Of a DNA stretch of 24,526 bases, positions 9,653-22,265 are shown in pieces; within the stretch, counting starts at the first letter, position 1, and each line of letters starts with the position of its first letter. A model generated the notes under the pieces. The model had not been told where the DNA came from. It did no database searches and was given only the letters and a program-made list of their open reading frames with translations. The stretch comes from a virus. The translations under genes and the position numbers were made by a program. The stretch covers positions 1 to 24,526 of IMG/VR virus record IMGVR_UViG_3300047310_000225. One strand, 5' to 3'.

Positions 9653-10168
9653 ATGAAAAAGAACCTCAGCAACATCCTGATCAACCGGGCACGCGACTTC
9701 GCCCGGTTGAAGCACGCCGACCAGAAGCGCGACTACACGGGCGCACCCTACTGGCTGCACACCGCACAGGTGGCGCGGCTGGTGTCGATGGCGACCGGCG
9801 ACCCCATCGTGATCGCGGCCGCCCACCTGCACGACATCCTCGAGGACACCGACGTCACCTACGGCCAACTGATCAACCAGTTCGGCACGGGCGTGGCTGA
9901 ACTGGTGCGGCAGGTCACCAACCCCTCGACCGACATCGACCGCGCCAAAAGATGGGCGCTCAACAGCGCGCACTTGGCGAAGGCCTCACCGGCCGCCATG
10001 ACCATCAAGCTGGCCGACATCATCGACAACACCTCGACCATCGAGTTCTACGACCCCGACTTCGCCAAGGTGTACTTGGCCGAGAAGCGCCCGCTGCTCG
10101 ACATCCTGAAGGCGGGCGACCCGACACTGTGGAAGATCGCACTCGAACAGATCACGGAGAACGCATGA
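9653..10168 (+). CDS. HD-domain (p)ppGpp hydrolase-like protein
   Basis: 171 residues. The fold is that of the SpoT/MESH1 hydrolase domain: ARDFARLKHADQKRDYTG, H36 in YWLHTAQVA, AAAHLHDILEDT (H60-D61 and E64-D65) and TIKLADIIDNTSTI (D122, N126). These match the metal-binding HD pair, the E-D pair and the late Asp/Asn of Mn-dependent alarmone hydrolases. There is no synthetase, TGS or ACT domain, so it is a stand-alone small hydrolase. By inference it removes (p)ppGpp (or a related nucleotide) during infection and keeps host growth and transcription favourable. All key residues are present. Other HD phosphohydrolase substrates cannot be ruled out. Confidence 0.85.
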   Translation: MKKNLSNILINRARDFARLKHADQKRDYTGAPYWLHTAQVARLVSMATGDPIVIAAAHLHDILEDTDVTYGQLINQFGTGVAELVRQVTNPSTDIDRAKRWALNSAHLAKASPAAMTIKLADIIDNTSTIEFYDPDFAKVYLAEKRPLLDILKAGDPTLWKIALEQITENA

Positions 10169-15371: not shown

Positions 15372-15839
15372 ATGAGCAAGCACGATGAAGAAAAAGGCCA
15401 AGCGACTTCTCAAAACCATCAAGCGTCGAAAACAGGCACGGGCCAAACGCAGCGCCACGTCGCAGGTACTCAAGCCGCAGCCGACCAGCCCGTAGTGCCG
15501 ATGGACGTCGGGGCCGAAGGCGTGCGCGCCGAAGGCATCGAGACACCCACGGTCACGGCGCTCGTACCCGACACGGCGGTGGCTGGCGAGGGCGAGCAGA
15601 TCACGATGGTGGTCGAGGGCACCGGCTTTCACCCGAAGTCCGTGATCATGTTCGGCGGCAACGACGAGCCGACGACCTTCATCAGTTCGACCAAGCTGTC
15701 GACCGGGGTGAAGCCGTCGCTGTTCGTGCCGGATGCGGTGCCGGTCGCGGTCCGCAACGCCGGTTTCCCGGCCAGTAACGAAATGCCGTTCACCTTCACG
15801 GACGCCGACGCGCCAGCGACGATGTCAAAAAAGCGGTAG
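15372..15839 (+). CDS. IPT/TIG immunoglobulin-like domain protein
   Basis: 155 residues from an ATG at 15372 with GAGG 6 bases upstream. The first 45 residues are polar and disordered. Residues about 54-148 form an IPT/TIG-type beta sandwich: TPTVTALVPDTAVAGE, ITMVVEGTGFHPKSVIMFGG, then SSTKLSTGVKPSLFVP and VPVAVRNAGFPASNEM. This is the P-x-V-x-x-[IL]-x-P ... G-x-G-F-x-x-x-S-x-[IV]-x-[FW] layout. In phages such domains usually decorate virions or help adhere to surfaces. It has no signal peptide and lies among head genes, so capsid decoration is likely. A later start at ATG 15501 is possible. Confidence 0.75.
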   Translation: MSKHDEEKGQATSQNHQASKTGTGQTQRHVAGTQAAADQPVVPMDVGAEGVRAEGIETPTVTALVPDTAVAGEGEQITMVVEGTGFHPKSVIMFGGNDEPTTFISSTKLSTGVKPSLFVPDAVPVAVRNAGFPASNEMPFTFTDADAPATMSKKR

Positions 15840-15843
15840 GAGA

Positions 15844-16110
15844 ATGGCTCTCCACAAGGATGCGTTCTCGTATCTGAGGCCGACCGACCGGCAGGTCGAC
15901 ATGATGGATGAACTGCGCGGCGGTGCCGCGCAGTACGCCAAACTCATTGACATCGCCGTGCCGGACGGTCCCGACAAGACCTACGCGCTGCGCCATTTGC
16001 GCGAGACCGCCATGTGGGTGAACACGGCAATCACGCGCTTTGCCGACGGCACCGCAAGGACCGACGCATGGAGCGAGGGTCTGGTGACCGACGAGGAGGT
16101 CAGCAAATGA
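15844..16110 (+). CDS. acb2: Acb2/Tad1-hairpin-like protein, probable anti-CBASS sponge
   Basis: 88 residues from an ATG at 15844, right after GTAGGAGA. Residues 26-65 read GGAAQYAKLIDIAVPDGPDK, TYALRHLRETAMWVNTAITR. This follows the Acb2 pattern: a helix with A-x-x-[LY]-A-x-x-I, the V-P-x-G-x-x-K-x-x-A-L turn, then a helix L-x-E-x-x-M-W-x-N-x-A-I-x-R. Acb2 proteins form hexamers that bind cyclic di- and trinucleotides made by CBASS and so block host defence. Position between capsid-module genes is common for this family. No biochemical proof here. The exact nucleotide-contacting residues could not be checked by alignment. Confidence 0.78.
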   Translation: MALHKDAFSYLRPTDRQVDMMDELRGGAAQYAKLIDIAVPDGPDKTYALRHLRETAMWVNTAITRFADGTARTDAWSEGLVTDEEVSK

Positions 16111-16337
16111 TCGAAAGCATCATCACGCTGCTCATTTACATTTGCGTTCTCGCCATCGTCGTGTACCTGATCATCTGGGTGCTCGGCATCATCGGCGTCC
16201 CCATTCCGCCCAAGGTGGTGCAAATCCTCTGGGTGATCGTGGCGCTGGTGGCGATCCTGCTGCTGGTGCGCATGCTGCCGCTCAAGATGGGCGCTGCTGA
16301 TCCGCACGGCAACACGGTGGTCTATGCGAATAGATAA
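16107..16337 (+). CDS. Small two-helix membrane protein (Thivi_2564-like)
   Basis: 76 residues from an ATG at 16107 (ATGA overlap) with GAGGAGG 7 bases upstream. Two hydrophobic helices are clear: about residues 4-30 (IITLLIYICVLAIVVYLIIW) and about 38-58 (VVQILWVIVALVAILLLVRM), with a short V-P-I-P-P-K turn between. The C-terminal 17 residues are polar. The layout resembles the Thivi_2564 family of small membrane proteins found in many phages and bacteria. A holin-like role is possible from size, but it is in the head module with no lysis gene beside it. Confidence 0.7.
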   Translation: MIESIITLLIYICVLAIVVYLIIWVLGIIGVPIPPKVVQILWVIVALVAILLLVRMLPLKMGAADPHGNTVVYANR

Positions 16338-16512
16338 CCCGGCGGCGATGCCGTGCGACAACGTCGACAAGGGGCCGGAGCACAACTGGATACGCCGCGC
16401 CGATGGCACCTCCGAGTGCCTGAACTGCGGCACCCGGCTTGACGTGAAGCAGACCAGCGATGCCTTCCCCTCGAGCGGCAACGAAATCAAGAAGAAGGCG
16501 GGCGCGAAATAA
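16324..16512 (+). CDS. Small zinc-ribbon-like protein
   Basis: 62 residues from an ATG at 16324 overlapping the previous gene by 14 bp. Cys at 11, 32 and 35 (MPCDN, ECLNCG) and H20 (PEHNWI) make a plausible Cys/His zinc site. The tail is polar and ends in a Lys/Ala cluster. Small H-x-W ... C-x2-C-G proteins of this kind are frequent in phage head modules (recall); function unknown. Confidence 0.7.
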   Translation: MRIDNPAAMPCDNVDKGPEHNWIRRADGTSECLNCGTRLDVKQTSDAFPSSGNEIKKKAGAK

Positions 16513-16513
16513 G

Positions 16514-17059
16514 GTGACCGCATCCGGCGGGAAGACTTGGCTCGATGGTGTCACCGGCTTTGGGCGCATCACCACCGAACCGCTGGAATGGCTGCCGTTG
16601 GAGTTCCTGTGCTTCAACATGCGCGCCTCCGACCGCGAAGAAATCACCGCCATGCTGCCGACCGACAACCCGCTCGAGTGGGCGGCGATGCTGCATCAGG
16701 CCTTGGCGAAAGACGGCTGCGGCTGGATCGCCCGCTTCAACGGCCGACCGGCGGCGTGCATGGGCGTGTTCGCCAACTTCCCCGGCAACTGGCAGGTGTT
16801 CTCGTTCGGCACCGACCTCTATCCGCGCGTCATGGTGGTGTTCAAGGATCGCATCGAGCGCATGGTGGCGTTCGCGCGCGCGCGCGGCATGCACCGCTTG
16901 GAGTGTAGAAGCATCGCCAGCCACGGGCTGGCGCATGCGTGCATCCGGCTGGTGGAGTTGAAGCCGGAGGTGACCATGAAGCAGTACGGCCGCCACGGCG
17001 AGGACTTCATCCTGTTCGCGCGCACGTGGCCTATCGAAGAAAAAAAGGCCGTCGAGTGA
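16514..17059 (+). CDS. GNAT-like acetyltransferase fold protein
   Basis: 181 residues from a GTG at 16514. The family is phage-type GNAT/internal-virion-like: DNPLEWAAMLHQALAKDG, GWIARFNGRPAACMGVFANF, VFKDRIERMVAFARARGMHR, RLECRSIASHGLAHACIRLV and MKQYGRHGEDFILFART. The last two parts match the G-x-[KR]-R-[LA]-E ... H-x-x-[AG]-x-x-x-[IL] ... Y-G-x-[DH]-G-E-D-[FY] pattern of podoviral proteins of this kind, some packaged in virions. The usual GNAT Q/R-x-x-G-x-G/A loop is not clear, so acetyl-CoA use is uncertain. The stop codon is inside a hairpin. Confidence 0.72.
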   Translation: MTASGGKTWLDGVTGFGRITTEPLEWLPLEFLCFNMRASDREEITAMLPTDNPLEWAAMLHQALAKDGCGWIARFNGRPAACMGVFANFPGNWQVFSFGTDLYPRVMVVFKDRIERMVAFARARGMHRLECRSIASHGLAHACIRLVELKPEVTMKQYGRHGEDFILFARTWPIEEKKAVE

Positions 17060-17358: not shown

Positions 17359-17664
17359 GTGGCAACCGCCAATACATTGGCGTGCCGCAAGTGGCGGGAA
17401 AAGAACCGCGAGCGCGAGCGTGAACGTCATTGTGCCTACCGTGCAGAAAATCCCGATTGGTGGCGCAAGTATGCCGCGCCGGATGAAAAGAAGCGGGCGA
17501 AGTGGCGGGTGCGGCACGCAAAGGACACCGGCAGACTGATCGAGCAGCCGTGTCATTGCGGGGCCAAGGCACAGGCCCACCATCCCGACTACAGCCGACC
17601 GCTCGACGTGGTATGGCTGTGCAGCGTCCATCATGGAGAAGCCCATCATGCGCCGACCGGGTGA
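17359..17664 (+). CDS. HNH-like zinc protein
   Basis: 101 residues from a GTG at 17359 with AAGGAG 7 bases upstream. Residues 5-55 are Arg/Glu/Lys-rich and helical (a DNA-binding arm). Residues 65-97 read CHCGAKAQAHHPDYSRPLDV, VWLCSVHHGEAHH: C65, C67, H74-H75, D77, C88, H91-H92, H96-H97. That matches the small phage HNH-like family 'C.CG...AHH.DY..PL.V.WLC..HH...H'. It could cut DNA or be a structural zinc protein. Position in the head module suggests a packaging-linked role. Confidence 0.75.
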   Translation: MATANTLACRKWREKNRERERERHCAYRAENPDWWRKYAAPDEKKRAKWRVRHAKDTGRLIEQPCHCGAKAQAHHPDYSRPLDVVWLCSVHHGEAHHAPTG

Positions 17665-17896
17665 AATTCAGATCGCGTGGTGTTTTGGCGGCGGCGGTTC
17701 ATCGGCACCTGCGCCTACTCCTGCGGCCCCGCCGCCGCCGCCGTCCAAGATGGACGAAGGCGCGGCCGGACGACAGGCTTCGGTCGACCAGATCAGGGCG
17801 TCACAGGCCTCGGGTTTTCAGTCGACGGTCGGACCCAGCGGGCTGGGCGGCCTCGACAGTTCAACGCGGACCACCAAGACTTTGCTCGGAGCGTAG
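17648..17896 (+). CDS. Cys-Gly-headed Pro-rich protein, copy 1
   Basis: 82 residues. The start at 17648 is preferred (GGAGAAG 6 bases upstream); another ATG at 17633 would add five residues. After 10 residues comes AWCFGGGGSSAPAPTPAAPP, a disordered polar middle, and the end STRTTKTLLGA. The C-x-G-G-G head, Pro/Ala linker and K-T-L-L-G tail recur in copies 1 and 4 here, and small proteins with these features occur near portal genes of many podoviruses (recall). Function unknown. Confidence 0.72.
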   Translation: MRRPGEIQIAWCFGGGGSSAPAPTPAAPPPPPSKMDEGAAGRQASVDQIRASQASGFQSTVGPSGLGGLDSSTRTTKTLLGA

Positions 17897-17899
17897 CCA

Positions 17900-18235
17900 A
17901 TGTGCTTCGCTGGCGGCGGACAACAGCAGAACCAGAACACAATGGGCATCGGCGGACCAATCAGCGGAGCAGGAACGGGACAGTACGGCCCGCCGCCGAC
18001 CGCCACGCCCGCCCCGCCGCCGGTCGCTGGCGCAGCGCCAGCACAGGCGGGCGGCCCGCAACCGGCGCAAAACGCAGGGCCGCAGTTCGTGGTCAAGAGC
18101 ATCGAGCCGCAGAAGCCCGACAGTCCCGTCGACCCGGAGGCGATGGGCTACAAAGGCGGCACCGTGGCGGCGCTCGACAAAGTGAGTGCCAACCAGATGA
18201 AACGCAAACGCGACCAGTCGCTGGTGGACAACTGA
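17900..18235 (+). CDS. Cys-Gly-headed Pro-rich protein, copy 2
   Basis: 111 residues. It starts MCFAGGGQQQNQNTMGIGG, so Cys becomes residue 1 if Met is removed. A long Ala/Pro/Gly linker follows, then a more ordered tail (QFVVKSIEPQKPDSPVDPEA, KVSANQMKRKRDQSLVDN). No T-L-L-G tail in this copy. It has one Cys and a basic end. It lies between copies 1 and 3 and is probably expressed with them. Function unknown. Confidence 0.7.
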   Translation: MCFAGGGQQQNQNTMGIGGPISGAGTGQYGPPPTATPAPPPVAGAAPAQAGGPQPAQNAGPQFVVKSIEPQKPDSPVDPEAMGYKGGTVAALDKVSANQMKRKRDQSLVDN

Positions 18236-18236
18236 C

Positions 18237-18479
18237 ATGTTCGAGTATCGTGACAGGTTCATCTGCTACTGCTTCGGCGGCGGCAACAACTCTCCACCCC
18301 CTCCACCGGCCGCGCCCAATGTCGGCGTCATCGACGTCAACAAGGTCGCGCCCGACCCGTCACAGGCGGGACCGTGGCGCGGCGGACAGGCCGCCCCCAA
18401 CGACACCGGCCGCGTCGGCGGCGGGCTGCTGGTCGATGCCGCGCTCAAAGCACCCAAGACTTCATTAGGAGGATTGTGA
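18237..18479 (+). CDS. Cys-Gly-headed Pro-rich protein, copy 3
   Basis: 80 residues from an ATG at 18237, 1 base after the previous stop. FICYCFGGGNNSPPPPPAAP gives the same C-F-G-G-G then Pro-rich head as copy 1, preceded by a short basic/aromatic segment. The rest is Gly/Pro/Asp-rich, ends with KAPKTSLGGL, a relaxed form of the K-T-L-L-G tail. Disordered, unknown function. Confidence 0.7.
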   Translation: MFEYRDRFICYCFGGGNNSPPPPPAAPNVGVIDVNKVAPDPSQAGPWRGGQAAPNDTGRVGGGLLVDAALKAPKTSLGGL

Positions 18480-18480
18480 C

Positions 18481-18687
18481 ATGTGTGGCGGCTCCGCTCC
18501 CCAGCAACCGGCCCCGACCCCGCCGCCCATCGGCACCCCCGGCAATCCTGCGGCGGGACCGCAAGCCGCCCCGGTGGCGGAAGGCGCGGCGGCCGCAGCG
18601 GCGCGTGCCGCTGGCGGTGCGCAACAGGCGGGCACGCTCGGGCAGTCGCAGCAGAACATCACCTCGAAGACGCTGCTTGGGCAATGA
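18481..18687 (+). CDS. Cys-Gly-headed Pro-rich protein, copy 4
   Basis: 68 residues starting MCGGSAPQQPAPTPPPIG, Ala-rich helix in the middle (VAEGAAAAAARAAGGA), end SQQNITSKTLLGQ. GGAGG precedes the start (TTAGGAGGATTGTGAC). The head and the S-K-T-L-L-G tail match copy 1. It is the closest copy to the connector. Function unknown; linker or small virion protein is possible. Confidence 0.72.
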   Translation: MCGGSAPQQPAPTPPPIGTPGNPAAGPQAAPVAEGAAAAAARAAGGAQQAGTLGQSQQNITSKTLLGQ

Positions 18688-18688
18688 C

Positions 18689-18976
18689 ATGCTCAAGGGC
18701 ATCCTTCCCAAGATCAGGAAGGCGGGTCCGTTCTGGGGCACGTTCCTGTGGGCGTTCGGCTTCAACGGCGTGTACACGCCGTGGGGCATCTTCCTCACCC
18801 CGAAATACTTCAACAACCGCGCGCTGCGCCGTCACGAAATCTGCCACTGGCTGCAACGCCGCCGCGACGGGTTTATTCCGTATTGGGTCAAGACCTTCTG
18901 GTATCTGGCGCGCTACGGCTACTGGAACTCGCCTTACGAGGTCGAGGCGCGCAAGGCCATGAACCATGCCGGTTGA
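18689..18976 (+). CDS. Small HEXXH putative metallopeptidase
   Basis: 95 residues from an ATG at 18689, one base after the previous stop. Residues 46-53 (LRRHEICH) contain HEXXH (H49, E50, H53), the zinc and catalytic motif of metallopeptidases. YEVEARKAM (83-91) gives E84 or E86 as a likely third ligand. The N-terminus (FWGTFLWAFGFNGVYTPWGI) is hydrophobic and aromatic. The motif order H-E-x-x-H-W ... Y-W-N-x-P-Y-E-V-E-A-R recurs in other phage proteins (recall). It lies directly before the connector, so prohead protease or host-wall protease are both possible; no evidence decides. Confidence 0.65.
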   Translation: MLKGILPKIRKAGPFWGTFLWAFGFNGVYTPWGIFLTPKYFNNRALRRHEICHWLQRRRDGFIPYWVKTFWYLARYGYWNSPYEVEARKAMNHAG

Positions 18977-20831
18977 CACAGAACAACTGATCGGGCGCTA
19001 CCACAAACTCGACAGCGACCGCGCCAACTGGCGCAACATGTGGGAAGACTGCGCGCGCTACGGCGCGCCGCGCCGGATGGGTGCGATAGGCCCGCGCGCG
19101 GACGGCGACCGCCGCATCAGCCCGCAAATCTACAACCCGATAGGAATACAGTGCGTGCAGACGCTGGCCGCTGCCATGCACGGCATGCTGATGAACCCGG
19201 CCACCAACTGGCTCAACATCAGGCTGGCGGACGAGGCGCTTGACGAGCAGGAGAGTTCAAAGCACTGGACCGGCAGCGTGTCGAAGGGGATCAGCAACGC
19301 GCTAAGTTCGCCGCATACTGCGTTTCATAGCCAAGCCAACCAGTTGCTCGAGGACATGTCGAGCCTCGGCACCGCCGTCATGTACATCGGCCAGCAGAAG
19401 ACCGGCCACCTGTTCACGCGCACCTATCCGATCTTCGAGTGCTGCATCGCGGAGAACGAGTACGGCTTCGTCGACACCGTCATGCGCGACAGCATGTACA
19501 CGGTGCGCCAGATGGTTCAAATCTGGGGCGAGAAAGTTTCGCCCAAGGTGAAGGCGCTGTACGACAAGGGCAAGTACGACGACAAGTTCAAGGTGCTCAA
19601 CGTCTGCACCCCGCGCTCCGACGAGCAGCGCGACCGCAGCAACAAGACCCCGCAGCACATGCCCATCGCGGTCTGCTACATCGAGGAAAACGAGCAGAAC
19701 GTGGTGGAGGAAAGCGGCGTCGAGGAAATGCCCTACGTGGTGCCGCGCTGGTGGGTGATCAGCGGCGAGGTGCATGGGCGTTCGCCGCTGATGACGGCAT
19801 TGCCGCAGGTGAAGGTCGCGAACGCTGCAACGCGCACCGTGATGCGGGCGGCAGAGAAGGCCGTGGACCCGCCGTTGACCGTGCCGCACGAAGGGCTTGT
19901 CGGCCCGGTCAGACAATATCCCGGCTCGCTCACTTACTTGCGCAACAAAAGTGAAATCGGCCAGATGCCAACCTCGTCGCAACTTCCCTACGCGGGCGAG
20001 TACATCATGAAGCTGGACAACGCCATCCGCACCACCATGTTTGTCGACCAAGTGCAGTTTGTTGGCGACTTCAAGATGACGGCGACCGAAGTTATCCAGC
20101 GGCAGACGGAACGCATGCGGCTGCTGGGGCCGGTCTTGGGCCGCTTGGAGAACGAGTTTCTGAACCCGCTGGTCGAGCGCGTGTTCGGCATCATGTCGCG
20201 GCTCAATGCGTTCCAGCCGCCGCCGCAGGAAATACAGGGCGCGGACATGCGGATCGAGTACCAGTCGCCGCTCGCCCGCGCGCAGAAGTCGCAGATCGCG
20301 CAAGGCTTCGAGCAGGTCATTGCCGTGCTCGAGCCGCTGGCGAAGTTAGGCCCCGACATCGCGCAGCAACTGTTCGGCCCCATCGACATGGGCAAGGTTA
20401 CGCCCATGCTGTTCGACTGGTTCGGCGTCGACGAAGCCATGCTCAAGACCGACGACCAGCACGCGGCGGCCGCGCAACAGGCCAACCAGAAGAACATGAT
20501 GGCGATGGTGCCGATGCTGGCGAAGGCGTTCAAGGACGGCGGCATGGGCATGGACAGCATCGCGTCGGCTGGCAAGCAGTCGGTCGAGACCATCGGCAAC
20601 GCGCAGCAGATGCCGACGCCGCAGATGCCGACGCCCGCGCCCGGATCACCTGCCGCAGGGCCGCCATCGGCGCAGCCGCCGCTCGCCCCCGCCCCCGGTC
20701 AGGGCGCACCCGGCGGACCCGGCGGCATTGACCTGAGCAAGATCATCGGCTCGATTGCAGGTGGTGCCGCCAAGATGATACCGGGCGCGGTCGGCTCGGT
20801 GGCGGGCGCACAACAGGCCTACAGGCAGTAG
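18966..20831 (+). CDS. Head-to-tail connector (portal) protein
   Basis: 621 residues. The T7/BPP-1-type connector forms the dodecameric ring through which DNA enters and leaves the capsid. Family features: the WRNMWEDCARYGAP segment near 22-35, LAAAMHGMLMNPATNWLNIR (about 67-86), SSLGTAVMYIGQ (about 131-142), VPRWWVISGEVHGRSPLMTA near 260-280, then VGDFKMTATEVIQRQTERMR (about 365-384), LLGPVLGRLENEFLNPLVER (about 385-404) and RAQKSQIAQGFEQV. The last 100 residues are Gln/Pro/Gly-rich and disordered, then a Gly/Ala end. It overlaps the HEXXH gene by 11 bp. Length is longer than T7 gp8 (536) because of that tail. Confidence 0.95.
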   Translation: MPVDTEQLIGRYHKLDSDRANWRNMWEDCARYGAPRRMGAIGPRADGDRRISPQIYNPIGIQCVQTLAAAMHGMLMNPATNWLNIRLADEALDEQESSKHWTGSVSKGISNALSSPHTAFHSQANQLLEDMSSLGTAVMYIGQQKTGHLFTRTYPIFECCIAENEYGFVDTVMRDSMYTVRQMVQIWGEKVSPKVKALYDKGKYDDKFKVLNVCTPRSDEQRDRSNKTPQHMPIAVCYIEENEQNVVEESGVEEMPYVVPRWWVISGEVHGRSPLMTALPQVKVANAATRTVMRAAEKAVDPPLTVPHEGLVGPVRQYPGSLTYLRNKSEIGQMPTSSQLPYAGEYIMKLDNAIRTTMFVDQVQFVGDFKMTATEVIQRQTERMRLLGPVLGRLENEFLNPLVERVFGIMSRLNAFQPPPQEIQGADMRIEYQSPLARAQKSQIAQGFEQVIAVLEPLAKLGPDIAQQLFGPIDMGKVTPMLFDWFGVDEAMLKTDDQHAAAAQQANQKNMMAMVPMLAKAFKDGGMGMDSIASAGKQSVETIGNAQQMPTPQMPTPAPGSPAAGPPSAQPPLAPAPGQGAPGGPGGIDLSKIIGSIAGGAAKMIPGAVGSVAGAQQAYRQ

Positions 20832-21119: not shown

Positions 21120-21370
21120 CGCTCGAACTTGTAAGACAACTGACCCTGCAACAGCGCCTCGACGACCTCGCCGCCGAACTGCTGGCGCGCGCGGTCGCGC
21201 TCGACAACCTCGCCGCCGACATCGAACACACCATGAAGCAGGTGCGGCAGCGCGAGAAGACCTTGCGCGAGCGCGAGCGCGACGTGCTCAACGCCTCGGC
21301 TGAAATCGTCGTCATGCGCGACAAACTTCAACGCGGAGAAATCGACTATGCCCGACGACCTGCTCAGTGA
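21116..21370 (+). CDS. Coiled-coil protein in head module
   Basis: 84 residues from an ATG at 21116 (ATGA overlap). The whole protein is one or two charged amphipathic helices (QRLDDLAAELLARAVALDNL, then EKTLRERERDVLNASAEIVV) and should form a coiled coil. It overlaps the scaffold gene by 23 bp. Small helical proteins at this place may help assembly; not recognised as a named family. Confidence 0.7.
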   Translation: MTLELVRQLTLQQRLDDLAAELLARAVALDNLAADIEHTMKQVRQREKTLRERERDVLNASAEIVVMRDKLQRGEIDYARRPAQ

Positions 21371-22265
21371 TGCGCCCGCCCCCGCCGCCCCGGCCGCCGC
21401 CGCGCCAGCCCCTGCTGGTGCTGCTGCGCCGCCTCCGGCTGCTGTCCCTGCTGCAACAACGCCGCCCAACGTGGCGGCGCTCGCCCCCGACCCAACCAAG
21501 GAGTTCATGAAGACGCTGCCGCAGGACCTTCAGCAGAACGCCTCGCTGTCGCGCTACACCACCACCGAAAGCCTCGCGCGCGCCTATGTGAACCTCGAAC
21601 GCACGCTCGGCTCGGAGAAGGTGCCGATCCCGAAGGACCCCAACGATCAGGAGGCATGGGACCGCTACTACGTCGCCGGAGGACGGCCGCCGGAACCGAA
21701 GGCCTACCAGTTCCAGAAACCCGACCGCATGCCGGAAGGCATGGTCTGGGACGACAACATGGAGGGCTGGTGGCGGCAAGCCGCCTTTGAAAGCGGGCTG
21801 TCACAACGGCAAGCGCAGAAGCTGGTCGACCAGTACCGCGACCGCTACGCCGCGCAGATCGACTTGGGCAACAAGCAGGTCACCAGCGAAATCATGAACG
21901 GCAAGGCGGTGCTGCAACGCGACTGGGGCAGCGAGTACGAGACACGCCGCGCCATCGCGCGCGCCGCCTTCCTCGACCTTCCGGCGGTGGTGCAGCAGCG
22001 CGCACGCGACAGCGGGCTGGCGCGCGACCCGGAGTACATCAAGAGCCTGTACGCGCAGCGGGTGGCGCTGACCGGCGAACGGCAGCCGCGCCCGCCCGGT
22101 GAAAGCGCGGAAGGGTCACCCGACGCGCTGCGCGGCCGCATCGCCTCGTTCCGCTCGCAGCACGATGCCGCGCTCAAGGACGTGTCGCACCCGGAGCATG
22201 ACCTGCGGCTGAAGGAACTGACCGACATGCACAACCGGCTGTTTGTCGAACAGCCAGCGGCGTGA
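21348..22265 (+). CDS. Capsid scaffold/assembly protein
   Basis: 305 residues from an ATG at 21348. N-terminus is Ala/Pro-rich (about 8-45) and disordered. Then PTKEFMKTLPQDLQQNASLS, SRYTTTESLARAYVNLERTL, GSEKVPIPKDPNDQEAWDRY and GRPPEPKAYQFQKPD, the usual order in podoviral scaffold proteins. The C-terminal half is highly charged and helical (QRQAQKLVDQYRDRYAAQID), and ends with PEHDLRLKELTDMHNRLFVE. Scaffolds guide capsid assembly and are lost before DNA packaging. Position just before the capsid gene and the acidic/helical nature both agree. No protease site is obvious. Confidence 0.85.
   Translation: MPDDLLSDAPAPAAPAAAAPAPAGAAAPPPAAVPAATTPPNVAALAPDPTKEFMKTLPQDLQQNASLSRYTTTESLARAYVNLERTLGSEKVPIPKDPNDQEAWDRYYVAGGRPPEPKAYQFQKPDRMPEGMVWDDNMEGWWRQAAFESGLSQRQAQKLVDQYRDRYAAQIDLGNKQVTSEIMNGKAVLQRDWGSEYETRRAIARAAFLDLPAVVQQRARDSGLARDPEYIKSLYAQRVALTGERQPRPPGESAEGSPDALRGRIASFRSQHDAALKDVSHPEHDLRLKELTDMHNRLFVEQPAA

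What the first reader, a model, noticed from the sequence alone, without database searches (positions are those of the whole stretch)
18689..18976. Tiny HEXXH protein before the connector
HEICH plus a downstream E-V-E-A-R in only 95 residues would be a very small zinc peptidase. Its place in the head genes raises the possibility of a minimal prohead protease or an entry enzyme.
Basis: partly seen in the sequence, partly recalled or inferred. Interest (0 to 1): 0.5.

Follow-up and report, generated by a model that had tools for sequence, protein, structure and literature searches.

The report
Tiny zinc-protease-like phage protein
A 95-residue phage protein carries a conserved zinc-protease-type active site and belongs to an unnamed family found in several unrelated phages, often beside lysis genes, so it is more likely a small late-acting accessory enzyme than the protease that matures the phage head.

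Summary
The ORF is real: 18689-18976 (+), 95 aa, HEICH at 49-53, EVEAR at 84-88, its end overlapping the portal start by 11 nt. The motif alone is not beyond chance, but relatives keep it: HExxH in 60 of 60 relatives read; in a 41-row alignment H49, E50, H53 and Q56 are invariant and E84 stands in 40. AlphaFold (pLDDT 90) predicts a minimal zincin with E84 on the last helix as likely third zinc ligand. All 41 match phrog_37302 (function unknown); the link to DUF4157 is weak.

A prohead protease is unlikely. None of 42 viral loci with a 58-62% identical capsid protein but a distant portal carries the gene, although 12 of 12 contigs of the window's own clade do. Elsewhere it lies after tail-fibre genes and before holin/endolysin genes (14 of 33 clusters), before capsid genes, or near terminase.

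Best reading: a late accessory mini-gluzincin acting at the host envelope, probably helping lysis. Gene reality, conserved site and changing position are shown; the fold is predicted; zinc binding, proteolysis, location and role are inferred. No lysis gene was identified in the window's own clade, so the lysis reading is untested there.

The parts
18689..18976 (+). gene of the 95-aa mini-gluzincin-like protein (phrog_37302)
   Evidence: phrog_37302 E 2.5e-13; dN below dS
18833..18847 (+). HEICH, residues 49-53: predicted zinc ligands H49 and H53, general base E50
   Evidence: invariant in 41 of 41 aligned rows
18872..18916 (+). predicted helix 62-76, basic and amphipathic, between the HEXXH helix and the Glu helix; possible membrane-surface helix (inference)
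   Evidence: model; hydrophobic moment above 95% of shuffles in 9 of 16 members, the window's included
18938..18952 (+). EVEAR, residues 84-88; E84 is the likely third zinc ligand
   Evidence: E84 in 40 of 41 rows, E86 in 38 of 41; E at position 84 in 12 of 12 Bacteroidota homologues read, position 86 in 10 of 12
18966..18976 (+). 11-nt overlap with the portal start; translational coupling inferred
18966..20831 (+). connector/portal protein, downstream neighbour (context, not part of the enzyme)
   Evidence: PF12236 E 7.4e-116; phrog_332 E 4.1e-116

Best explanation
The gene encodes a minimal stand-alone gluzincin-type zinc metallopeptidase. A beta-hairpin and three helices hold one zinc through H49, H53 and E84, with E50 as general base. 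It is a late accessory gene that sits in different places in different phages. Most likely it is made late and cleaves a host (or phage) protein at the inner membrane or in the periplasm, weakening the envelope and helping holin and endolysin to lyse the cell; without a signal peptide it could act at the membrane face or be let out by the holin as endolysins are. It is not a head-maturation protease. Shown by computation: a real gene, conserved active-site residues, purifying selection, changing position, frequent place just before lysis genes. Predicted: the zincin fold. Inferred: zinc binding, proteolysis, membrane location, lysis role. My odds: about 0.8 for a zincin-type metal site, about 0.35 for an envelope/lysis role.
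For: H49, E50, H53, Q56 invariant in 41 of 41, E84 in 40 of 41. Twelve Bacteroidota loci read (one, L075, is the L065 genome already in the alignment) all keep HExxH and the Glu at 84, while position 86 is Ala in two, so E84 fits the ligand better than E86. Model pLDDT 90, five models 79.6-90.0; H14-23, E27-30, E33-36, H44-60, H62-76, H82-92. BFVD match A0A6J5LHG8, an 81-aa phage protein named DUF4157, E 1.8e-7, TM 0.73/0.85. Place: 14 of 33 clusters (clusters) have a recognised holin or endolysin relative within 2.4 kb downstream, none of the 60 loci upstream (the queries were taken from downstream genes, so this is biased). Less biased: of 25 families shown for 72 downstream genes 10 are holin/endolysin, of 25 shown for 55 upstream genes none (25 of 111 and 25 of 116 families shown). 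In L017 and L033 the next gene starts 1-2 bases after it, and an endolysin follows. Precedents: the VgrG2b C-terminal zinc domain is toxic in the periplasm and causes midcell blebbing and lysis (PMC6899460, passages); a phage-derived Listeria metzincin pair increases sensitivity to phage lysis (PMC8235301, abstract).
Against: No zinc, activity or localisation data. No lysis gene was identified in the window or its clade; I looked at ORFs by eye and ran no dedicated search, so the lysis reading is untested there. 19 of 33 clusters show no lysis match, the window's clade among them, and some of these have short flanks. Tail-fibre genes next to lysis genes is a common phage layout, so a gene inserted between them will lie near lysis genes by chance; the many 'KTAP..' loci are one lineage. 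Foldseek found no solved structure at E up to 0.001 and its top rows were methyltransferases; VIA best Z is 5.0, below what the tool calls meaningful. Helix 62-76 is not significantly amphipathic in 7 of 16 members. No signal peptide or clear transmembrane helix is apparent: highest 17-residue hydropathy 0.96 in the window's protein. L061 has Gly at 84 and L063 a stop at Q56, so the gene is damaged or altered in some phages.
Confidence: 0.4

Rival explanations
1. Minimal prohead protease: it trims scaffold or capsid protein during head maturation.
For: In the window's clade it is directly before the portal in 12 of 12 distinct contigs with upstream DNA (18 loci, six contigs fetched twice), with overlapping genes. 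Downstream genes of the family include head scaffolding and major head protein families, two members each, presumably L058 and L042.
Against: 0 of 42 viral loci with a 58-62% identical capsid protein but a portal under 45% identical have it, while L157, whose capsid protein is 59% identical, does (best 80 of 504 capsid relatives kept). 0 of 8 annotated records by profile, and none of the 38 records is among the 4 records. Capsid proteins in records without the gene mostly align from residue 1, so no extra propeptide is seen. In BPP-1 the two capsid proteins appear uncleaved (PMC3863775, passages); BPP-1 is a weak precedent: Bordetella records share the portal family but none is in the capsid list. 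Elsewhere the gene is away from head genes.
Confidence: 0.07
2. Virion or entry enzyme: it is packaged in head or tail and cuts an envelope protein during DNA entry.
For: Coupled to the portal in the window's clade; follows tail-fibre genes in many others; in Pseudoalteromonas phage J2-1 a baseplate wedge gene lies about 4 kb downstream. A conserved HExxH lies in the ejected N4 vRNAP (PMC12633501, passages).
Against: No virion evidence; no fusion to a structural protein noticed in the loci read; lysis-side neighbours in 14 clusters.
Confidence: 0.2
3. Cytosolic host-takeover or anti-defence protease, in the manner of PprI/ImmA-type regulators.
For: PprI is among the structural matches (Z 4.6); small and accessory; an Acb2/Tad1-type gene lies nearby.
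Against: Late-gene positions; no defence or regulator neighbour seen as a pattern.
Confidence: 0.15
4. Metal-binding or inactive zincin fold used as a structural or chaperone part.
For: Small size; some copies lack the full site (L061, L063).
Against: The general base E50 is kept in 41 of 41, which a purely structural role would not require.
Confidence: 0.12

Closest known systems
phrog_37302
   Same: 41 of 41 aligned members match it; window protein E 2.5e-13.
   Different: The family has no named function; the metallopeptidase reading is mine.
DUF4157 / eCIS_core (PF13699)
   Same: HExxHxxQ helix; profile-profile probability 72.5, E 3.3e-5 over 36 columns; a 144-aa and a 179-aa Bacteroidota ORF match both this family's profile and PF13699 over its cut-off.
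   Different: Window protein has no Pfam hit; only 14 of 41 members match weakly, best E 0.011. The eCIS_core domains read end near HELTHxxQQ with no evident conserved Glu helix; the phage family has one.
VgrG2b C-terminal metallopeptidase
   Same: Gluzincin core of helices and strands, Glu as third ligand, often annotated DUF4157 (PMC6899460, passages).
   Different: A domain of a secreted spike protein with an immunity partner; the phage protein is stand-alone. Not fetched or aligned here.
M56/M48 membrane gluzincins (BlaR1/MecR1, BepA)
   Same: Z 3.3 and 3.1; MecR1 has a membrane helix between HEXXH and its E-K-V-C-D motif (PMC6925264, passages), as the phage protein has a basic helix between HEXXH and E84.
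   Different: Far larger, with transmembrane helices; Z too low to claim kinship.
Minigluzincins (abylysin type)
   Same: Small soluble gluzincin-like scaffolds (PMC4559962, passages; size about 100 residues recalled).
   Different: Their third ligand is His (PMC6925264, passages); here it is a conserved Glu.

Membership tests
Gluzincin-type zincin, clan MA(E) | HEXXH with both His and the Glu conserved | tested here: met
   41 of 41 rows
Gluzincin-type zincin, clan MA(E) | Glu third ligand on a helix after the HEXXH helix | tested here: met
   conserved E84 (40 of 41) on predicted helix 82-92; zinc geometry itself not tested
Gluzincin-type zincin, clan MA(E) | zincin fold | tested here: inconclusive
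   confident model, viral match E 1.8e-7, but no PDB match at E up to 0.001 and best Z 5.0
Gluzincin-type zincin, clan MA(E) | zinc binding and proteolysis | not testable with these tools
   needs purified protein
phrog_37302 | profile match | tested here: met
   E 2.5e-13; 41 of 41 members
DUF4157 / eCIS_core PF13699 | match over the curated cut-off | tested here: not met
   0 Pfam families for the window protein at E up to 1
DUF4157 / eCIS_core PF13699 | distant homology by profile comparison | tested here: inconclusive
   probability 72.5 over 36 columns
Prohead maturation protease | accompanies the same capsid protein wherever it occurs | tested here: not met
   absent in 42 of 42 loci and 8 of 8 records
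Prohead maturation protease | cleaved capsid or scaffold protein in virions | not testable with these tools
   needs virion mass spectrometry
Minigluzincins (abylysin type) | third His ligand | tested here: not met
   no third invariant His; conserved Glu instead; definition from passages of PMC6925264
Lysis protein | gene within the lysis cassette | tested here: inconclusive
   14 of 33 clusters, not the window's clade

The most novel reading that the evidence does not exclude
Phages carry a previously unnamed protein-cutting lysis component: a minimal, membrane-associated gluzincin of about 90 residues, released or activated with the holin, that cuts envelope proteins as a companion to holin, endolysin and spanin, and that is related to the metallopeptidase domains bacteria inject with phage-tail-like weapons.
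Probability: 0.2. Interest if true: 0.7.

Novelty: new member of a known kind. Interest (0 to 1): 0.38.

Why it matters
If active, it is among the smallest natural proteins with a complete gluzincin site and puts a mechanism on a phage family without a name. If it acts in lysis, it would add a protein-cutting step to a process described mainly through holins, endolysins and spanins. It also offers a small relative for studying what DUF4157-type domains do, whose role is still open (PMC8213781, passages).

Tried and rejected
Prohead protease: rejected on distribution and position. Direct PDB sequence search: no hit for the single protein, two chance-like hits for the profile (E 0.11 and 0.27). 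NCBIfam: none. Recoding of the stop at Q56 in L063: under table 15 the long + strand ORFs barely change against table 11, so a damaged copy is more likely than a TAG=Q phage. A frameshift explanation for L061 was not resolved. The two lysis-neighbour tests are limited: one search used queries taken from downstream genes; searches show only the 25 commonest families, and I gave them 55 of 73 upstream and 72 of 91 downstream genes of 31 of 33 clusters (list), leaving out ORFs that looked misframed or were uninformative to me. Some cellular zincin families may be missing, which saw only 108 chains. Literature: no paper on a phage HEXXH prohead protease or on phrog_37302 appeared in the listings (open-licence library, titles and abstract starts only); this does not show that none exists. 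No dedicated endolysin search was run in the window's relatives.

Full report
Observation. The reading frame 18689-18976 (+) is as described: 95 aa, HEICH at 49-53, EVEAR at 84-88, ending 11 nt inside the portal gene. The window is an IMG/VR virus record of 24,526 bases with a terminase large subunit, portal, Bbp19-like protein, scaffold-like protein and capsid protein of the PF19821 type. The motif is the only HExxH in six frames, but 1.5 are expected after base shuffling, so the case rests on relatives.

Relatives. A one-sequence scan of viral contigs gave 6 loci, an alignment scan 57. All 60 relatives read (57 viral, L065 from a Bacteroidetes genome, phages J2-1 and C48C1) have HExxH; 59 have the Q at +7; 58 fit the fuller pattern with the downstream Glu, the two exceptions being L061 and L063. 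In the 41-row alignment H49, E50, H53, Q56, G61, G77, Y78 and P82 are invariant, E84 is 40 of 41, E86 38 of 41, A87 and R88 40 of 41. Selection is purifying in the 5 pairs where dS could be computed. All 41 match phrog_37302, of unknown function. Beyond phages, 26 of 296 sampled genomes of the phylum of G006 (the L065 genome) have a match at E up to 0.001; in the 12 loci read, all keep HExxHxxQ and a Glu at position 84, while position 86 is Ala in two. E84 is therefore the better candidate for third ligand.

Structure. AlphaFold2 on the alignment gives mean pLDDT 90 and pTM 0.80: helix 14-23, hairpin 27-36, HEXXH helix 44-60, helix 62-76 and helix 82-92 carrying E84. The best viral match is an 81-residue phage protein named DUF4157 (E 1.8e-7, TM 0.73/0.85), followed by an unnamed 113-residue protein (E 1.0e-5) and SprT-like proteins (E 6.9e-3 and 2.3e-2). 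Against solved structures Foldseek has nothing at E up to 0.001, and its top rows are methyltransferases. The second look lists gluzincins with low Z: lethal factor catalytic region 5.0, PprI 4.6, BlaR1 3.3, BepA 3.1, leukotriene A4 hydrolase 3.0; that these are zincins is recalled. The fold is thus predicted, not established. The window protein is very basic (net +11) and rich in aromatic residues (23%), with no strong transmembrane stretch. Helix 62-76 is amphipathic beyond 95% of shuffles in 9 of 16 members tested and not in 7. In MecR1 a membrane-associated helix lies between the HEXXH and the E-K-V-C-D motif (PMC6925264, passages), which suggests, but does not show, a membrane-facing role here.

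Family. Pfam gives no hit for the window protein; 14 of 41 members touch eCIS_core/DUF4157 weakly, best E 0.011. Profile comparison with 12 eCIS_core stretches gives probability 72.5 over 36 columns; with a second HEXXH stretch in one such locus 26.2 over 56 columns. Two Bacteroidota ORFs match both this family's profile and PF13699 over its cut-off (G078 and G186). I take it as a distant relation, not membership.

Place in genomes. In the window's own clade (portal 49-100% identical) the gene is before the portal in 12 of 12 distinct contigs with DNA there (18 loci), so it matters to that clade. But 42 of 42 loci with a capsid protein 58-62% identical and a more distant portal lack it in the stretch fetched (each with at least 400 bases before the portal; 80 of 504 capsid relatives were kept). 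Eight annotated records with a homologous capsid protein, searched whole by profile, have none, while J2-1 and C48C1 do. Elsewhere it lies about 0.6 kb before a terminase ORF (L016), before what look like scaffold and capsid genes (L058, L042), or between tail-fibre-type genes and lysis genes. Fourteen of 33 clusters have a holin or endolysin relative within 2.4 kb downstream and none of the 60 loci upstream, with the bias stated above; of the 25 families shown, ten for downstream genes are lysis families and none for upstream genes. L063 has a stop at the invariant Q56 and a changed C-terminus, suggesting the gene can be lost.

Mechanism. The most likely chemistry is that of other gluzincins: zinc held by H49, H53 and E84, water activated by E50, a peptide bond cut (established for the class; inferred here). 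The substrate is unknown. I commit to a host envelope target late in infection because of the lysis-side position in several backgrounds, the basic amphipathic helix in many members, and two precedents: VgrG2b's zinc domain kills from the periplasm with midcell blebbing and lysis, its substrate also unknown (PMC6899460, passages), and a phage-derived Listeria metzincin pair increases phage lysis (PMC8235301, abstract). Against it: no lysis gene was identified in the window's clade (none seen by eye; no dedicated search), the gene is coupled to the portal there, and tail-fibre/lysis junctions are common insertion places (recalled). Entry from the virion is the main rival; an HExxH domain in the ejected N4 polymerase (PMC12633501, passages) shows that such motifs do occur in ejected proteins.

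Verdict. A real, conserved, unnamed family of tiny gluzincin-like proteins; the enzyme idea is well supported by sequence and prediction, the prohead idea is not.

Noticed in passing
window 15733-16110 (+), domain about 15871-16038: Acb2/Tad1 hairpin domain (PF24729, E 1.5e-10, over cut-off): a likely anti-CBASS/Thoeris sponge (function recalled).
   Followed up: partly
window 17633-17896, 17900-18235, 18237-18479, 18481-18687: Four small Pro/Gly-rich ORFs in a row with a Cys-Gly-Gly-type start; two end in K-T-L-L-G. No clear family (first one phrog_831 E 4e-4; last one none). Possibly repeats of one virion or tail-assembly protein.
   Followed up: no
window 16014-16337 (+): ORF with two hydrophobic stretches, holin-like by eye; only weak PHROG hits (spanin 0.0077, holin 0.37).
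   Followed up: no
window 16460-17059 (+): ORF with weak hits to phrog_4177 (1.2e-4) and to an internal virion protein family (phrog_308, 0.0026); GNAT-like by recall; relatives have an annotated acetyltransferase at the same place.
   Followed up: partly
window 9653-10168 (+): HD-domain phosphohydrolase (PF13328, E 1.7e-13; phrog_990, E 2.7e-36).
   Followed up: no
window 21348-22265 (+): Scaffold-like protein whose counterparts are annotated 'putative protease' in some relatives; weak protease PHROG hits (1.8e-4, 2.6e-4).
   Followed up: no
L063 5974-6240: Family member with TAG at the invariant Q56 and a changed C-terminus; the contig does not look recoded.
   Followed up: yes
L016 6907-9480: Terminase ORF of 857 aa that by eye carries an intein-like insertion right after a P-loop-like GHGVGK.
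   Followed up: no
L017 523-1539, L020 4639-5730: Reverse-transcriptase-like ORFs (phrog_1423, two upstream members) just upstream of the family member, as in diversity-generating retroelements (recalled).
   Followed up: no
L071 17551-19371 (-): Internal-virion-like protein of a relative ending in an L,D-transpeptidase-like H...GC motif, by eye.
   Followed up: no
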